DNA of 64,000 bases from Sphingobacteriaceae bacterium (lineage in GTDB: Bacteria; Bacteroidota; Bacteroidia; B-17B0; Aurantibacillaceae), in NCBI GenBank assembly GCA_002319075.1, contig NVQB01000001.1, forward strand, positions 4,526,001-4,590,000, written 5' to 3'. Positions 50,009 to 55,162 of this stretch are shown here, piece by piece. Below the pieces are notes generated by a model. That model saw only the letters and a list, made by a program, of their open reading frames with translations, ran no database searches and had not been told where the DNA came from. The translations under genes and the position numbers were made by a program. Positions within the stretch are counted from its first letter, which is position 1, and each line of letters begins with the position of its first letter.

Positions 50009-50350
50009 GGAAGCTCTGCAACTTTAAATACCGTAATCAAAATAAATGGTCGCAATAAATATCTTATTTATAAGATTAGAGAGACTAATAAAGATTTTGA
50101 ATGTCTTGAAAGTATTGATTTTATTGATGTTTTGGTGTTATTTTGTTTAGCGTATTCAACATCAAATTCCCTTTTGGTTTAGAAAATTCGGTTTACGAAT
50201 TTAAAATAGACCTTCACTCATTGAAATAAAATATATTAAAAATATTTTCTGAATATTTAATAGGTCCTAAAGTATTAATTTTACTGGTGTTTTAAGGCTT
50301 GTTTAAAATCATTCCGAATAGTCATTCGTACTTTTCATAAAAAAAAATTA

Positions 50351-50380
50351 TTGCAGAATAAAAAAAATGATTTACATTTG
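50351..50380 (+). promoter_or_regulatory. Bacteroidota-type promoter of the leader region
   Basis: TTG (50351-50353), 19 bp, then TACATTTG (50373-50380), a good match to the TAnnTTTG element. Transcription would begin near 50387, shortly before a 26-codon leader ORF. The 340 bp before it (50009-50350) are AT-rich with nothing recognised. Confidence 0.6.
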
Positions 50381-50404
50381 TGTCAGAAATTAAAAAACAG
50401 AAAA

Positions 50405-50545
50405 ATGAAACCAAGTTTAACATATCATCAAAACCTACGCCAGGAGGGGATTTCCCCGGTATGCTGGAGTATGAGGTTATGTTAAAGCTTGAAAAATAAT
50501 TATATTTTTTAAAACATAACCTCGGCTAAACACCGGGGTTTTTTA
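50405..50545 (+). promoter_or_regulatory. leader ORF with mutually exclusive hairpins (attenuator-like)
   Basis: A 26-codon ORF (50405-50485, MKPSLTYHQNLRQEGISPVC, ending WSMRLC). GAGGTTATGTT (50473-50483) pairs exactly with AACATAACCTC (50513-50523). The last four bases of that partner (CCTC) are also the left arm of a terminator, CCTCGG...CCGGGG (50520-50538), followed by TTTTTT. CCCCGG at 50454-50459 can also pair with the right arm. Such competition is the logic of an attenuator. No amino-acid gene follows, so a small RNA is an alternative. Confidence 0.5.
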
Positions 50546-50555
50546 TTGAGCAAAA

Positions 50556-50673
50556 ATGAAGCAACCCAGTTTGCAGAATATATTTTTCTATCAAAAAGGT
50601 TTTACCTGACATGGGAATCGTATGCAATAGTGTGAACTATTTCAACCCGATCCCCTAAAGGATCGGGTTTTTT
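50556..50673 (+). promoter_or_regulatory. second short leader ORF with terminator
   Basis: A 17-codon ORF (50556-50609, MKQPSLQNIFFYQKGFT) starts like the first leader (AAAAATGAA). It is followed by AACCCGATCC-cctaaa-GGATCGGGTT plus T-run (50644-50673), a strong terminator. The unit resembles a degenerate copy of the upstream leader. Confidence 0.45.
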
Positions 50674-50732
50674 TATGCCGGGTAGTCAAAAAGGCAGGAG
50701 AGTTATCGGGAGCCACCCCGACAAAAAAAGAA

Positions 50733-50805
50733 CGGGAAGTAGTTCAGTTGGCAGAACGCGGGCTTTGGGAGCTTGAGGTCGCAGGTTCGAGTCCTGTTTT
50801 CCCGA
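50733..50805 (+). tRNA. tRNA-Pro(TGG)
   Basis: Acceptor CGGGAAG/TTTCCCG, D-arm GTTC...GAAC, anticodon loop TTTGGGA with TGG at 34-36, T-arm GCAGG-TTCGAGT-CCTGT, discriminator A. It is a complete and regular cloverleaf. CCA is not encoded. It is the one normal tRNA in this cluster. Confidence 0.9.
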
Positions 50806-50810
50806 CATAT

Positions 50811-50896
50811 GTTGAGATTGGTGTAAGGGTTAACACACTGGTTTGTGGTACCGGCAATATGGATTCTCCCGATAGCTATCGGAACCTTATCTCAAC
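50811..50896 (+). tRNA. tRNA-His(GTG)-like gene with palindromic insert in the T-loop
   Basis: G at -1 (50811), acceptor TTGAGAT/ATCTCAA, C73: identity features of tRNA-His. D-arm GTGT/ACAC, anticodon arm CTGGT-TTGTGGT-ACCGG with GTG. The T-arm is abnormal: after TTC the loop holds TCCCGATAGCTATCGG (50867-50882) before A, and the stem ATGGA/ACCTT has two mismatches. Whether it makes a working tRNA is doubtful. Confidence 0.65.
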
Positions 50897-50940
50897 CGGT
50901 AAAAATTATGAAGTGAAAAATAATTTTCATTTCATAATAA

Positions 50941-51027
50941 GGACAAGTAGCAGACGTGGTGTATGCGTTGCTCTGAAAAAGCAAAGAAAGTGATTCTCCC
51001 GATAGCTATCGGGATCACTCTTGTCCA
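50941..51027 (+). tRNA. tRNA-Phe(GAA)-like gene with palindromic insert in the T-loop
   Basis: Acceptor GGACAAG/CTTGTCC perfect, D-arm GCAG/ATGC, anticodon arm TTGCT-CTGAAAA-AGCAA with GAA, T-stem AGTGA/TCACT perfect, discriminator A. The T-loop reads TTC, then TCCCGATAGCTATCGG, then GA, so it is 21 nt instead of 7. The insert sits at the same point as in the His-type gene 60 bp upstream. Confidence 0.7.
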
Positions 51028-51073
51028 CAACTAAAAGAAAACGAATTAAAAAATTTTGCTTCACAAAAAAGAA

Positions 51074-51592
51074 ATGGAAAATGAAATACATATGGAAGAA
51101 CAGATCCTTGAAGTGGATAGACTGTACGAAGATGGTGAGTATTCAGAATGCAAACGCCGTTTACTCGACATGCTTGAGCAAGAGCCTGGTTTTGGTCGCG
51201 CGCATCACCTCATTGGTTGCCTGTATTACTACATATTGGATGACCAGGACAAAGCGGAAAAACATTTACGACTGGCAGTAATGTTTGCACCGACTTATCC
51301 GGCAGCATTTGTGAATTATGCACGCGTACTCAATCATCTGAACAGACAGGAAGCTTTACTGAAACTTGTATCAGAAGCATTGAAAGTAGAAGGGATGAAC
51401 AAGTGTATTATTCTTATGGAAAAAGCAAAGTCGCATGAGATAAACGGAGATCTTAAAAAAGCTTTGAACAGTTACTATGATGCAGAACGTTTTGCAGTTT
51501 CGCGTTACGAGGTAGAAGAAGTGAAAATTGGAATTAAACGAATAAAAAGTAAAACGCTAAGACCATTCAAACGTTTGTTTTCAGTCAAGTAA
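51074..51592 (+). CDS. small TPR-repeat protein
   Basis: 172 residues from ATG 51074 (a TTG at 51056 would add six residues). Two to three TPR-like helical pairs (VDRLYEDGEYSECKRRLLDM, ARAHHLIGCLYYYILDDQDK-like, FAPTYPAAFVNYARVLNHLN) and a basic C-terminus (KTLRPFKRLFSVK) point to a protein- or RNA-binding scaffold. It lies inside the tRNA-like cluster, 46 bp after the Phe-type gene and upstream of the slipin gene. Confidence 0.75.
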   Translation: MENEIHMEEQILEVDRLYEDGEYSECKRRLLDMLEQEPGFGRAHHLIGCLYYYILDDQDKAEKHLRLAVMFAPTYPAAFVNYARVLNHLNRQEALLKLVSEALKVEGMNKCIILMEKAKSHEINGDLKKALNSYYDAERFAVSRYEVEEVKIGIKRIKSKTLRPFKRLFSVK

Positions 51593-51628: not shown

Positions 51629-51646
51629 TCCCTATAGCTAGCGGGA
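51629..51646. repeat. degenerate copy of the T-loop palindrome
   Basis: TCCCTATAGCTAGCGGGA, four changes from TCCCGATAGCTATCGGGA, preceded by GCTC. No clear cloverleaf surrounds it. It begins the geneless stretch 51593-52385. Confidence 0.6.
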
Positions 51647-51859: not shown

Positions 51860-52060
51860 TTAGCGTGCCACCAACACGTTGTGTGTTATGGGTTCAATTC
51901 CCGTTTCGCCTGAAAAACGAATAGCTCAATTGGTTAGAGCAACAACTCAAAGCGCAGGTTCGAATCCTGCCGCGATTTCTGATCGTGTAACTCAGTGGTA
52001 GAGTGCTGGACTGTTAATCCAGAAGGGGGGAGCAGGCTCGCTTCCAAAAAACAAATGAGT
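51860..52060 (+). ncRNA. array of degenerate tRNA-like elements
   Basis: Three consecutive partial cloverleaves. Near 51885-51913: ACA-CGTTGTG-TGT followed by a T-arm, ATGGG-TTCAATT-CCCGT. Near 51918-51978: D-arm GCTC/GAGC and a perfect T-arm GCAGG-TTCGAAT-CCTGC with only 13 nt between, so no anticodon arm. Near 51982-52047: D-arm ACTC/GAGT, anticodon arm CTGGA-CTGTTAA-TCCAG (GTT, Asn) and an abnormal T-arm GGAGC/GCTTC, without a matching acceptor stem. They may be tRNA remnants or a dedicated tRNA-like RNA. Confidence 0.5.
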
Positions 52061-52385
52061 CAACCGAAAGAAGGAATAAAGCCGTTCTGCTTACACTTAG
52101 CAATAGGTAAAAAGCAATTGGCAATAAACCAAGGTATGCAGATACCGCTTATGCAAAAATGCTGCTTTCTATAAAGCAAACAAATCTTCACGAAGGTTTG
52201 CAGATGTTATAAAAACCAACATTGGAGGCTTTAGCTCAAGCAGATCCTCCGTTTAAATTTAATGAGCGATTTTGTTTCTTCTTTTAAATAAAATAAATAA
52301 ACAATGAAGCGATATTCTGCTTCATTAGAAAATAAATATCAACCCGATGAACGTTGCCGGTACGTTTATCAAAAAACAAAAACAA

Positions 52386-53486
52386 ATGAAAATAGTAAAA
52401 ATAAATGCCTGGAAAAAAGGCTTAGTGTTTAAGAACGATAACCTGGTAAGGGTATTGAACGAAGGTGTATACTGGCTAAACCTGTTCGCCGAGGTAAAGG
52501 AGTATGATATGGCAAGACCATTTAATGCACCGTTGAATTTAAATATTCTGTTGAAGAACGAAGATTTTGTAAATGCAACTATTCTTGTTGAAGTAAAAAA
52601 TAACGAGATCGCCTTGCAATATGAAAACGGTTTATTCAAAGATGTATTAACTCCAGGTAGATATGTATTCTGGAAAGGTTTGATCAACTACAAGTTTATT
52701 GTTGCTGATTTGAATGCCAGAGAAATGGATGTTGGAATTGATAAGTCACTGCTGTCAAGAAAAGAGTTGCTGGCATTTGTAAGATCGTACACTGTTGAAC
52801 CATATGAAAAAGCGGTGATGTATGTAGATGGCAAGCTCACTAAAATAATTGATCCAGGAACTTACTACTTCTGGAAAAACAGCACCTCGATTGTGATCAC
52901 CAGAGCTGACTTAAGAGCTATTCAAATGGAAATAGCCGGACAAGAAATTCTGACTAAAGACAAAGCTGCATTAAGAATTAACTTTTATGCACAGTACAAT
53001 ATCAAAGATATTGTTAAGGCAGTAGTTAATAACAAAGAATACGACAAGCAATTGTATGTATTAATGCAACTGGCTTTGAGAGAGTTTGTAGGTTCATTGA
53101 CCTTAGATGAATTGCTGGAAAAGAAAGAGAACGTATCATCTTACGTTATAGAAACTGTTTCTAAAAAAGCAGAAGCGTTAGGTGTAACCTTAAATGGATG
53201 CGGTATCAGAGACATCATATTGCCAGGCGATATGAAGGACATCATGAACCAAGTATTAGTAGCTGAGAAAAAAGCACAGGCAAATACTATCATGAGAAGA
53301 GAAGAAACCGCATCGACCAGAAGCTTGTTGAACACTGCAAAATTAATGGAAGATAACGCGATGTTATTCAAATTAAAAGAAATGGAATATGTAGAAAAGA
53401 TTGCAGAAAAGATCAACAACATTTCTTTGTCAGGTGGTTCGCAGTTAGTGGATCAATTAAAACAAATATTTGTTCCGGCTAAGTAA
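52386..53486 (+). CDS. slipin-family SPFH/Band 7 protein
   Basis: 366 residues from ATG 52386 (52347 is an alternative). Two repeated N-terminal segments (GLVFKNDNLVRVLNEGVYWL, then KAVMYVDGKLTKIIDPGTYY) precede the SPFH core, which ends with a coiled coil (LVAEKKAQANTIMRREETAS). No N-terminal membrane helix is visible, unlike membrane stomatins. Slipins of this subgroup have been reported near RNA-repair genes (RtcB, TROVE/Ro60) and tRNA-like RNAs. No such enzyme is in this window, but tRNA-like elements flank the gene on both sides. Confidence 0.85.
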   Translation: MKIVKINAWKKGLVFKNDNLVRVLNEGVYWLNLFAEVKEYDMARPFNAPLNLNILLKNEDFVNATILVEVKNNEIALQYENGLFKDVLTPGRYVFWKGLINYKFIVADLNAREMDVGIDKSLLSRKELLAFVRSYTVEPYEKAVMYVDGKLTKIIDPGTYYFWKNSTSIVITRADLRAIQMEIAGQEILTKDKAALRINFYAQYNIKDIVKAVVNNKEYDKQLYVLMQLALREFVGSLTLDELLEKKENVSSYVIETVSKKAEALGVTLNGCGIRDIILPGDMKDIMNQVLVAEKKAQANTIMRREETASTRSLLNTAKLMEDNAMLFKLKEMEYVEKIAEKINNISLSGGSQLVDQLKQIFVPAK

Positions 53487-53535: not shown

Positions 53536-53640
53536 TCCGGTATACCTTAGTGGTAGAGTTGCTGTTTGTAAATAGCGTGTTGCAAGTTCTCCGGATACCT
53601 ATCGGGATTGCTATCGAATCAAACCGGTTTATGGCAGAAG
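53535..53640 (+). ncRNA. tRNA-like element with variant palindrome in the T-arm
   Basis: CCGGTATACC and a D-arm-like TTAGTGGTAGAG are followed by an anticodon-like hairpin GCTGTTTGTAAATAGC, one base short of a regular arm. The T-arm is GCAA-GTTC-[TCCGGATACCTATCGG]-GA-TTGC (53582-53611). The insert is a variant of that in the His and Phe genes, again directly after TTC. The 3' ACCGG could pair with the 5' CCGGT. It is not a functional-looking tRNA. Confidence 0.5.
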
Positions 53641-53838: not shown

Positions 53839-53854
53839 TTTAATTTTATTTCTG

Positions 53855-53928
53855 CGGACTGGACGGGACTCGAACCCGCGACCTCCGCCGTGACAGGGCG
53901 GCATTCTAACCAGCTGAACTACCAATCC
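53855..53928 (-). tRNA. tRNA-Asp(GTC)
   Basis: On the minus strand: acceptor GGATTGG/CCAGTCC with one G-T pair, D-arm GTTC/GAAT, anticodon arm CCGCC-CTGTCAC-GGCGG (GTC), T-arm GCGGG-TTCGAGT-CCCGT, discriminator G. Regular 74-nt cloverleaf; CCA not encoded. Confidence 0.95.
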
Positions 53929-54042: not shown

Positions 54043-54546
54043 TTAAAGAGATAAAATTTGTTGACCATGATTTTTACTTTCTACTTCTCTTATTATTTCT
54101 TTAATAAACCCCTTATAATCAATGATAAACGTTGTTCGCACGATGCCATCATAAATTTTCCCGAAAAGTTTTTTTGTACCCCATACATCATACGCTTTAA
54201 TTATTTTCATATCAACATCAGCTAAAAGCGGGAAGGGGAGTGAAAATTTCTTAGCAAATTTCGCATGCGATTTTTCGTCGTCAGCACTCACTCCAACTAC
54301 TGCGTAATTTTTTTGAGCAAGAACTTTGTACTCATCGCGTAAATTGCACGCCTGGTTAGTGCAGGTTGGAGTATTGTCTTTCGGATAAAAATAAAGGACC
54401 AGGGTTTTGCCAGAAAAGTCTGCTAAGCGAATAGTATTTCCATCCTGGTCCTTTGTTTCGAAGTCGGGAGCTTTATCTCCCGGTTTTAAAGAACTCGTAT
54501 GTGCTTTAAAAGCCGCCTCGTTATTCTTCTTCTTCGTTACGGACAT
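54043..54546 (-). CDS. bcp: thioredoxin-dependent peroxiredoxin (Bcp/PrxQ)
   Basis: 167 residues from ATG 54546. PrxQ-type motifs: GDKAPDFETKDQDGNTI, VLYFYPKDNTPTCTNQACNL with the peroxidatic Cys in PTCT and the resolving Cys five residues later, and the conserved RTTFIID. It reduces hydroperoxides using thioredoxin. Its start overlaps the end of the histone-like gene by 26 nt, in a different frame, so the two are co-transcribed. Confidence 0.93.
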   Translation of the reverse strand: MSVTKKKNNEAAFKAHTSSLKPGDKAPDFETKDQDGNTIRLADFSGKTLVLYFYPKDNTPTCTNQACNLRDEYKVLAQKNYAVVGVSADDEKSHAKFAKKFSLPFPLLADVDMKIIKAYDVWGTKKLFGKIYDGIVRTTFIIDYKGFIKEIIREVESKNHGQQILSL

Positions 54547-55162
54547 TTTTATCTCCACGTGCAATATCTTCTCCATCGTTATCATCATCATTTACTGATG
54601 AGTTCGTGTTCGCAGAGTGATCGTAATTGTTGTTTGCTTTTGTATCGTTTTCTTCGTCGTGAGAAGGTGTTATTTTTTCCATCACGTTGTGAGCTGCATT
54701 TTTTACAAAATCAGTAACAGCACCTGTTATTGCAGCAATTGTACTTATTTCTTTTTTAGGTGCCGCTTTTTTAATTGCTTTTTTTACCACTTTTTTTGCA
54801 GGAGCAATTTTTTTGGTAACAGCTTTCTTAACCGTTTTTACAGCTTTTTTCGCTGCTTTAACCACTTTTTTCGCTGCTTTTTTAGGAGCTACTTTTTTTA
54901 TAGCTTTCTTAACCGCCTTTTTTGCCGCTACTTTTTTAACCACCTTTTTTGCAGCCTTTACTACTTTTTTAGCGGTCTTTTTTGCTGCGCCTTTTTTTGG
55001 TGCTGCTTTTTTAACGGCTTTTTTTGCCGTAGCTTTTTTAGGCGCAACTTTTTTTACTGCCTTTTTTGCTTTAGCTGCAGTTTTTTTAACCGCTTTCGCT
55101 ACTTTTTTCGCTGTTTTCTTTACTGCTTTCTTCGCAGTTTTTTTAGCTATCTTCTTTGCCAT
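54521..55162 (-). CDS. histone H1-like Lys/Ala/Pro-rich protein with acidic tail
   Basis: 213 residues. Residues 1-~145 are almost only Lys, Ala, Val and Thr with Pro at intervals, in degenerate units such as KKAVKKTAKKVAK and APKKA. This is the composition of bacterial histone H1-like (Hc1/Hc2, AlgP-type) proteins. After a short hydrophobic segment (TIAAITGAVTDFVKNA) the last ~50 residues are Asp/Glu/Asn-rich, ending RNEEEE. It probably binds and compacts DNA. It is co-transcribed with nth (7-nt gap) and bcp (overlap). Confidence 0.8.
   Translation of the reverse strand: MAKKIAKKTAKKAVKKTAKKVAKAVKKTAAKAKKAVKKVAPKKATAKKAVKKAAPKKGAAKKTAKKVVKAAKKVVKKVAAKKAVKKAIKKVAPKKAAKKVVKAAKKAVKTVKKAVTKKIAPAKKVVKKAIKKAAPKKEISTIAAITGAVTDFVKNAAHNVMEKITPSHDEENDTKANNNYDHSANTNSSVNDDDNDGEDIARGDKNVRNEEEE

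What the first reader, a model, noticed from the sequence alone, without database searches (positions are those of the whole stretch)
50811..51027. Two tRNA genes carry the same 16-18-bp palindrome inserted at the same point of the T-loop
The His(GTG)-type and Phe(GAA)-type genes have good acceptor, D and anticodon arms, but directly after T-loop TTC both read TCCCGATAGCTATCGG. The insert comes from the perfect palindrome TCCCGATAGCTATCGGGA. In the Phe-type gene the T-stem (AGTGA/TCACT) is intact around it. Variants occur at 51629-51646 and, inside another tRNA-like T-arm, at 53590-53607. Repeated insertion at one position implies either a tiny mobile palindrome that targets T-loops or a dedicated tRNA-like RNA class that is not for translation.
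Basis: seen in the sequence. Interest (0 to 1): 0.88.

Follow-up and report, generated by a model that had tools for sequence, protein, structure and literature searches.

The report
Dead tRNA copies with hairpin-swapped loops
Two spare tRNA genes of a Bacteroidota bacterium have part of one loop swapped for a short hairpin; the same scar turns up in dead copies of tRNA genes in other members of the phylum, often beside a small gene of a DNA-cutting enzyme family, which points to an undescribed kind of selfish element living on tRNA genes.

Summary
In the His- and Phe-type genes the T-loop after TTC is overwritten by TCCCGATAGCTATCGG(GA). Paralogues beside a Ro60/TROVE gene in the same genome, and the His and Phe genes of a relative's array, have normal T-loops, so the palindrome is derived. 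Ordinary His and Phe tRNA genes exist elsewhere: these are spare copies.

The palindrome is not T-loop specific. It is a dispersed Bacteroidota repeat (27 places in this genome; 19 of 40 genomes of the genus) that recurrently replaces 3-5 nt of D-, anticodon, variable or T-loops in redundant, often partial or tandem tRNA copies beside an intact parent. In other genomes such copies often end a small unit: intact tRNA, GIY-YIG ORF, tRNA copy with a loop or arm replaced by a strong hairpin. In congener G061 all three loops of a tRNA-Leu copy are replaced; at that Gly-Leu locus two congeners have no insert and this genome has a capped 5' part.

Best reading: hairpin 'capping' of disabled tRNA copies belonging to a tRNA-nesting GIY-YIG element system; the window genes are capped relics without the ORF. 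How caps arise and what they do is inferred. My searches of an open-licence library found no description.

The parts
50733..50806 (+). tRNA-Pro(TGG), intact by ARAGORN; first gene of the array
   Evidence: counterpart in the paralogous array at L074 506-579
50811..50896 (+). His(GTG)-type tRNA copy with the 3' part of the T-loop replaced by the palindrome
   Evidence: palindrome-free paralogue L074 585-657
50867..50884 (+). palindrome copy TCCCGATAGCTATCGGAA (1 mismatch)
50941..51027 (+). Phe(GAA)-type tRNA copy with T-loop GATT replaced by the 18-bp palindrome; T-stem intact
   Evidence: palindrome-free paralogue L074 734-807
50997..51014 (+). perfect palindrome TCCCGATAGCTATCGGGA
51056..51592 (+). 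TPR-repeat protein (178 aa) inside the array
   Evidence: 40% identical relative in the G027 array
51629..51646 (+). decayed palindrome variant (2 mismatches), not in a recognisable T-arm
51880..52040 (+). tRNA-like / Y-RNA-like stretch: overlapping weak YrlA matches (33.6 and 35.2 bits; gathering 69) and two incomplete tRNA-model matches (32.5 and 35.0 bits; gathering 29)
52347..53486 (+). Band_7/SPFH (slipin-like) protein; 83% identical in the G019 array
53538..53625 (+). degenerate tRNA-like sequence with a palindrome variant (53590-53607) after GTTC of its T-arm

Best explanation
The two genes are spare, disabled copies of His and Phe tRNA genes whose T-loop was overwritten by an 18-bp hairpin. 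This 'hairpin for loop' swap is a recurrent event in Bacteroidota: 3-5 nt of a D-, anticodon, variable or T-loop of a redundant tRNA copy (whole, 5' part with leader, or 3' part with trailer) are replaced by TCCCGATAGCTATCGGGA or a relative of the form TCCCGA...TCGGGA, next to an intact parent gene. In many cases the capped copy is the tail of a small unit: intact tRNA, GIY-YIG ORF of about 80-105 aa, tRNA copy with hairpin-replaced loops or anticodon arm, sometimes in tandem. I propose that GIY-YIG nucleases of this group break and duplicate tRNA loci (as phage SegB amplifies tRNA segments) and that copies persist once a hairpin has removed the anticodon or the D/T elbow, so that they are neither cut again nor made into tRNA. 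The window genes would be capped relics without the ORF, in a spare tRNA array related to Ro60/slipin arrays. Shown: derived state, loop position, redundancy, recurrence in other families, tight GIY-YIG-tRNA-hairpin linkage. Inferred: cleavage, duplication by repair, immunity or blocked processing as the reason for the cap, and that the window genes came from this system.
For: Palindrome-free paralogues of both genes in the same genome, and no palindrome (up to 4 mismatches) in five related arrays L306-L310. Ordinary His and Phe genes at L016 and L008. 43 defective tRNA copies with a hairpin-for-loop or hairpin-for-arm swap; of the 40 with a stem of 5 bp or more, 30 lose mostly loop nucleotides (T 14, D 12, variable 3, anticodon 1) although 42% of parent positions are unpaired (p 2e-5; one row per parent 24 of 33, p 3e-4). 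G061 has intact tRNA-Leu, GIY-YIG, then a tRNA-Leu copy with D, anticodon and T loops all capped; at the same Gly-Leu locus G007 and G008 have no insert and G000 has a 5' copy with capped D-loop. The GIY-YIG group is in 62 of 148 Bacteroidota genomes. Of 30 loci taken, 18 have an intact tRNA within 400 nt upstream on the same strand (5 of the 30 were not scored); of those 18, 15 have a hairpin-replaced copy, 1 is unclear, 2 have no copy found (partly read by eye). TCCCGA(2-8 nt)TCGGGA hairpins: 32 per 89 kb around these GIY-YIG genes, 0 per 93 kb around Y1_Tnp genes, 0-1 for two permuted-stem controls; 14 of 37 lie from -20 to +150 of a GIY-YIG stop, a zone of 6% of the bases (p 1e-8; 4 of the 14 come from one tandem array). 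In this genome 4 of the 6 listed PF01541 places lie 93-347 nt downstream of a tRNA, and palindromes lie 24 and 78 nt from two other GIY-YIG matches.
Against: No GIY-YIG gene in the window (tblastn with four such proteins), nor beside the TROVE array of this genome. Many palindromes are not in hairpin loops: flanking complementarity exceeds permuted flanks in G000 (5.26 vs 3.78, sd 0.36) and the phylum set (4.54 vs 3.80, sd 0.17), but in the genus set 4.42 (null 3.88, sd 0.22, largest of 300 null means 4.44) is no higher than displaced points 60-200 nt away (4.20-4.41). The same test on 66 other TCCCGA hairpins is negative (4.14 vs 4.23, sd 0.25). tRNA-spanning flanks: 10 of 48 vs 14 of 382 control points in the genus, but 2 of 85 vs 10 of 641 in the phylum set, where the tRNA library was foreign, and 4 of 20 vs 10 of 121 in G000, where controls fell near parent tRNAs. 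GIY-YIG counts are higher in palindrome-bearing genomes (7.6 vs 3.9) but partly through genome size (partial rank correlation 0.45). Among 30 top genus GIY-YIG loci only 5 hold an ARAGORN tRNA. No cleavage, mobility or RNA data.
Confidence: 0.55

Rival explanations
1. A generic dispersed palindromic repeat (REP- or MITE-like) spreads without any link to GIY-YIG genes. It lands in many places; hits in tRNA arms survive only in dispensable copies, and pseudo-tRNA arrays such as this one collect them.
For: 27 places in the genome, most of them outside tRNA copies (8 of 27 in tRNA copies by my reading); 0-26 copies per genome in the genus; found in-frame in ORFs (G000 3916711; L224 by comparison with its repeat); wide spread in Bacteroidota.
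Against: Loop rather than random placement in tRNA copies, three caps in one copy, recurrent co-occurrence with GIY-YIG and with tandem partial tRNA copies, other hairpin sequences playing the same part in other genomes. No Y1_Tnp gene in G000.
Confidence: 0.3
2. Dedicated tRNA-like RNA class: the T-loop-extended RNAs are functional non-coding RNAs, for instance Y-RNA-like ligands of the Ro60/TROVE protein or of the slipin/TPR system.
For: Window array is paralogous to an array with TROVE and WYL genes; weak YrlA matches nearby; Phe copy keeps its cloverleaf.
Against: The palindrome is absent from five related arrays, the capped His copy folds poorly, the same caps occur in broken half-copies, and the His and Phe genes themselves give no YrlA match.
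Confidence: 0.1
3. REP/REPIN mobilised by a RAYT transposase.
For: Short palindrome in many copies; Y1_Tnp genes in 29 of 40 genomes of the genus.
Against: None in G000 (0 matches) although it has 21 full-length copies; no constant tetranucleotide at the foot of the hairpin (contexts); rank correlation given genome size only 0.21; 0 hairpins of this family in 93 kb around Y1_Tnp genes.
Confidence: 0.03
4. Assembly or library artefact.
For: Single assembly in hand for the window; no reads available.
Against: The same palindrome in 19 of 40 genomes of the genus and in isolate and metagenome assemblies of other Bacteroidota; reversed-pattern control 0.
Confidence: 0.01

Closest known systems
Free-standing GIY-YIG homing endonucleases near tRNA genes (phage T4/T6 SegB)
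   Same: Small GIY-YIG genes beside tRNA genes; SegB sits in the phage tRNA region and drives tandem amplification of a tRNA segment (PMC13096335 abstract, sections 10 and 12; PMC2988022 passages).
   Different: Cellular Bacteroidota genomes; about 80-105 aa ORFs directly behind the tRNA; every unit scored with a copy ends in, or is preceded by, a tRNA copy whose loop or arm is replaced by a hairpin (one unclear case aside). I saw nothing like the caps in the parts of those papers that I read.
Repetitive hairpin-forming elements of sponge and fungal mitochondria (RHE, double-hairpin elements)
   Same: Short dispersed hairpins of unknown mobility, found also inside RNA genes, without target duplications in the Allomyces case (PMC2800124 passages).
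   Different: Bacterial; here the hairpin replaces loop nucleotides of duplicated tRNA genes and is linked to GIY-YIG genes.
Rickettsia palindromic elements (RPE)
   Same: Short palindromic repeats in intergenic DNA and in-frame in ORFs (recalled; one search gave only a listing).
   Different: Far longer (recalled), not tied to loops of tRNA copies or to GIY-YIG genes as far as I know.
REP/REPIN with RAYT transposase
   Same: Short hairpin repeats dispersed in bacterial genomes (PMC3116915 and PMC3733652, seen as listings and abstract starts).
   Different: No Y1_Tnp gene in this genome and no constant tag at the hairpin foot.
Bacterial Y RNA (YrlA) with Ro60/TROVE
   Same: Array paralogue carries a TROVE gene and YrlA-like RNAs.
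   Different: The capped His and Phe genes are not themselves matched by the YrlA model.

Membership tests
Functional elongator tRNA | Seven-base T-loop with the conserved 54-60 bases, callable by tRNA finders | tested here: not met
   T-loop 57-60 replaced by 18 nt; ARAGORN calls neither gene
Free-standing GIY-YIG homing element (SegB-like) | GIY-YIG domain protein encoded in the unit | tested here: not met
   Met for the units in other genomes (three ORFs over the Pfam cut-off), but no GIY-YIG gene in the window, so the window genes are not filed as members
Free-standing GIY-YIG homing element (SegB-like) | Gene sits beside the tRNA that it acts on | tested here: met
   For the group, not for the window: 18 of 30 loci with intact tRNA within 400 nt upstream, 5 of the 30 not scored; 4 of 6 listed PF01541 places in G000 lie 93-347 nt behind a tRNA
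Free-standing GIY-YIG homing element (SegB-like) | Site-specific cleavage and homing into alleles lacking the element | not testable with these tools
   Only occupied and empty sites compared
REP/REPIN-RAYT | RAYT (Y1_Tnp) transposase in the genome | tested here: not met
   0 PF01797 matches in G000
REP/REPIN-RAYT | Constant GTAG-type tag at the hairpin foot | tested here: not met
   Flanks listed share no tag (read by eye; the GTAG tag is from the title of PMC3733652)
Bacterial Y RNA (YrlA, RF02553) | Match over the family's gathering score | tested here: not met
   33.6 and 35.2 bits at 51880-52004 against a gathering score of 69; none on the His and Phe genes at E up to 1
Mitochondrial RHE-type mobile hairpin | Dispersed, identical hairpins, also inside structural RNA genes | tested here: met
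   27 places; tRNA copies and an RNase P RNA. Resemblance of behaviour only; no common descent implied

The most novel reading that the evidence does not exclude
Bacteroidota carry an undescribed class of selfish tRNA-nesting elements: a tiny GIY-YIG nuclease behind an intact tRNA gene, which breaks and tandemly duplicates tRNA loci and whose duplicate tRNAs are disabled by swapping each loop, one after the other, for a standard hairpin cassette. The cap makes the copy immune to the nuclease and unreadable as tRNA. Free hairpins, such as those in the window's His and Phe genes, are the cassette spreading to other spare tRNAs and hairpins.
Probability: 0.35. Interest if true: 0.9.

Novelty: new variant of a known kind. 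Interest (0 to 1): 0.77.

Why it matters
It would explain a phylum-wide short palindrome and a large set of broken tRNA copies by one process, extend SegB-like tRNA amplification from phages to cellular genomes, and give a natural series of tRNAs whose loops were exchanged for hairpins. It also warns that tRNA finders miss or mislabel such copies: ARAGORN calls neither window gene, calls a hairpin-armed Val copy in G001 tRNA-Cys, and calls two capped Asn copies of Gillisia limnaea tRNA-Asn.

Tried and rejected
Artefact: rejected because of recurrence in many assemblies. REP/RAYT: rejected for this genome. tRNA intron: not pursued by any search; an RNA-level removal of the insert cannot be excluded here. 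A fixed target sequence at the insertion point: contexts share none outside tRNA arms. A D-loop pattern search in 395 phylum genomes found only the site in this genome, and the T-loop pattern found 8 places in 4 genomes, of which the three in G112 and one in G201 had no tRNA called nearby; exact-pattern searches were therefore a poor way to find relatives. Hairpin-in-loop as a general rule for all TCCCGA hairpins: negative. Defence-system models: the GIY-YIG, TPR, slipin and TROVE proteins give no strong PADLOC match; the WYL regulator matches WYL models. Paper searches for the palindrome itself (0 papers), for palindromes in tRNA loops, for Bacteroidetes short palindromes and for GIY-YIG at tRNA genes gave no description of capped tRNA copies; these were judged from listings, except for the passages named in the report. 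The library holds open-licence papers only.

Full report
What is in the window. Four copies of the palindrome (0-2 mismatches) lie at 50867, 50997, 51629 and 53590, with none expected by chance. Two sit directly after TTC of the T-loop of a His(GTG)-type and a Phe(GAA)-type gene. ARAGORN calls only tRNA-Pro (50733-50806) and tRNA-Asp (53854-53928, minus) in the window. The array also holds a TPR protein (51056-51592) and a Band_7/SPFH slipin-like protein (52347-53486), plus incomplete tRNA-model matches and weak YrlA matches at 51880-52040.

The palindrome is derived. A second array in the same genome (L074, around 5.363 Mb) has the same Pro-His-Phe order with ordinary T-loops. Its genes include a WYL/WCX regulator and a TROVE (Ro60) protein. 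Window blocks 50332-50699 and 50712-50996 align to it at 77%. For Phe the change is TTC-GATT-TCACT to TTC-palindrome-TCACT; for His about GAAT(C) is lost. Five related arrays (L306-L310, from G027, G010, G062, G028 and G019) hold no copy with up to 4 mismatches; the G019 array has normal His and Phe genes and an 83% identical slipin. Ordinary His and Phe genes exist elsewhere in this genome (L016, L008). The Phe copy still folds as a cloverleaf, with the hairpin stacked on the T-stem.

It is a dispersed repeat. The 16-mer occurs at 27 distinct places in this genome (25 forward, 2 reverse only), 21 of them as the full 18-mer, and in 19 of 40 genomes of the genus, this one included, with 0-26 copies. 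By my reading 8 of the 27 places in G000 are in tRNA copies: 759128, 759316, 812119, 4227492, 4576867, 4576997, 4938058 and 5363901. One locus outside the genus has it inside an otherwise complete RNase P RNA (L172, 246 bits).

Loop preference. Removing the palindrome and asking whether the flanks pair gave an excess over permuted flanks in G000 (n 20, 5.26 vs 3.78, sd 0.36), the genus (n 48, 4.42 vs 3.88, sd 0.22) and the phylum set (n 85, 4.54 vs 3.80, sd 0.17). In the genus set, however, displaced points scored the same (4.20-4.41), so the general loop preference is modest and uneven. The clear signal is in tRNA copies.

Broken tRNA copies beside an intact parent. Palindrome sites often have a palindrome-free counterpart nearby, with 3 or 4 nt at the swap point in the high-scoring cases. 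Upstream copies carry leader and 5' part with the D-loop hit; downstream copies carry 3' part and trailer with the T-loop hit. Some are tandem: three Cys units 69 bp apart in L136, two Thr units 58 bp apart in L139. A table over the loci in hand lists 43 hairpin swaps; of 40 with a stem of at least 5 bp, 30 lose mostly loop nucleotides and 10 mostly stem nucleotides, several of these being whole-arm replacements (three rows dropped for lack of a stem). Many of these loci were chosen because they hold the palindrome, so the table is not an unbiased sample; the tRNA-chosen and GIY-YIG-chosen loci in it (L001-L030, L321-L410) show the same pattern. In 30 tRNA-chosen loci of this genome the partial copies with the palindrome are those of Leu, Val (two) and Asn; those without are short 3' matches of Ala and Met and an array match of Pro.

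GIY-YIG link. In Gillisia limnaea three capped tRNA-Asn copies, an intact tRNA-Asn, a GIY-YIG ORF and a capped 3' part follow one another. In Flavobacterium soyae an intact tRNA-Val is followed by two units of GIY-YIG plus a Val copy with the anticodon arm replaced. In G001 a tRNA-Val has ten 89-bp upstream copies (the one printed carries a hairpin in place of the anticodon arm) and two GIY-YIG units downstream, each ending in a hairpin-armed copy. In G061 the copy behind the ORF has all three loops capped: AAT, ACT and AGT replaced by three versions of the palindrome. At this Gly-Leu locus G007 and G008 are empty and G000 has only a capped 5' copy. Pfam confirms GIY-YIG in the three ORFs tested.

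How general. A query with one such ORF (82 aa) found matches at E 1e-8 or better in 62 of 148 sampled Bacteroidota genomes. Of 30 loci taken, 18 have an intact tRNA within 400 nt upstream on the same strand, mostly 44-72 nt away; 5 of the 30 were not scored because my motif missed the ORF. Of the 18, ten are in the swap table, five more show a replaced anticodon arm by alignment (L381, L385, L393, L395, L403; L393 is the least clean), one is unclear (L383) and two have no detectable copy (L388, L391). Hairpins of the form TCCCGA(2-8)TCGGGA number 32 in 89 kb around these genes, 9 in 88 kb around genus GIY-YIG genes, 6 and 8 in about 90 kb around tRNAs, 0 in 93 kb around Y1_Tnp genes, and permuted-stem controls give 0-1. 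14 of 37 lie near a GIY-YIG stop codon (four from one tandem array). The TROVE array of congener G028 holds such a unit.

Limits. The window and the TROVE array of this genome have no GIY-YIG gene. Among 30 top PF01541 loci of the genus only 5 contain an ARAGORN tRNA, so many GIY-YIG genes there are not of this kind. Genome counts of GIY-YIG and palindrome go together (7.6 vs 3.9, p 5e-5), but genome size explains part (partial rank correlation 0.45).

How it may work. Phage SegB, a GIY-YIG enzyme beside tRNA genes, drives tandem amplification of a tRNA segment (PMC13096335; abstract, sections 10 and 12 read). A cellular counterpart would account for the tandem partial copies. A copy that keeps a complete tRNA sequence would be both a fresh target and a source of wrong RNA; swapping a loop or the anticodon arm for a hairpin removes both. 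That last step, the origin of the standard hairpin, and the reason why the window genes carry it without an ORF, are inference.

Known or new. Mobile hairpins inside RNA genes are known in mitochondria (PMC2800124, passages) and tRNA-associated GIY-YIG genes in phages. Capped tRNA copies tied to GIY-YIG genes in cellular genomes were not found in paper searches (open-licence library; listings and the passages named). I therefore rate this a new variant of a known kind, with a bolder reading kept open.

Noticed in passing
L311 (G000 5355000-5374000); L306-L309: Ro60-type loci: WYL regulator, TROVE protein, an array of tRNA genes and YrlA-like RNAs (38-46 bits for the best, below gathering) in 5 of 40 genomes of the genus; G027 also has slipin and TPR genes there.
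   Followed up: partly
L310 (G019:C18:70000-84000): A slipin-centred array with 19 ARAGORN tRNA calls of many isotypes within about 4.4 kb, like a second tRNA set, without a TROVE match in that genome.
   Followed up: partly
L172 4440-4846 (Cyclobacteriaceae MAG): Palindrome in a hairpin near the 3' end of an otherwise complete RNase P RNA (246 bits).
   Followed up: partly
L373 140-1105 (flipped; G001): Ten upstream 5' copies of a tRNA-Val at 89-bp spacing.
   Followed up: partly
L397 (G093): Eleven copies of TCCCGACACGTCGGGA, mostly at 68-bp spacing, interleaved with three GIY-YIG ORFs; no tRNA called in the locus.
   Followed up: no
G000 3916711 (L083); L224 3930: Palindrome apparently in-frame inside ORFs, as known for Rickettsia palindromic elements (recalled).
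   Followed up: no
L410 1758 (G152): Nested caps: a hairpin inside the loop of another hairpin, TCCCGATGTCCCGGCATCGGGACATCGGGA, replacing the anticodon arm of a tRNA-Ala copy.
   Followed up: no
window 54521-55162 (minus): Lysine-rich, alanine-rich ORF of 213 aa, perhaps a histone H1-like protein (by eye; no Pfam match).
   Followed up: no
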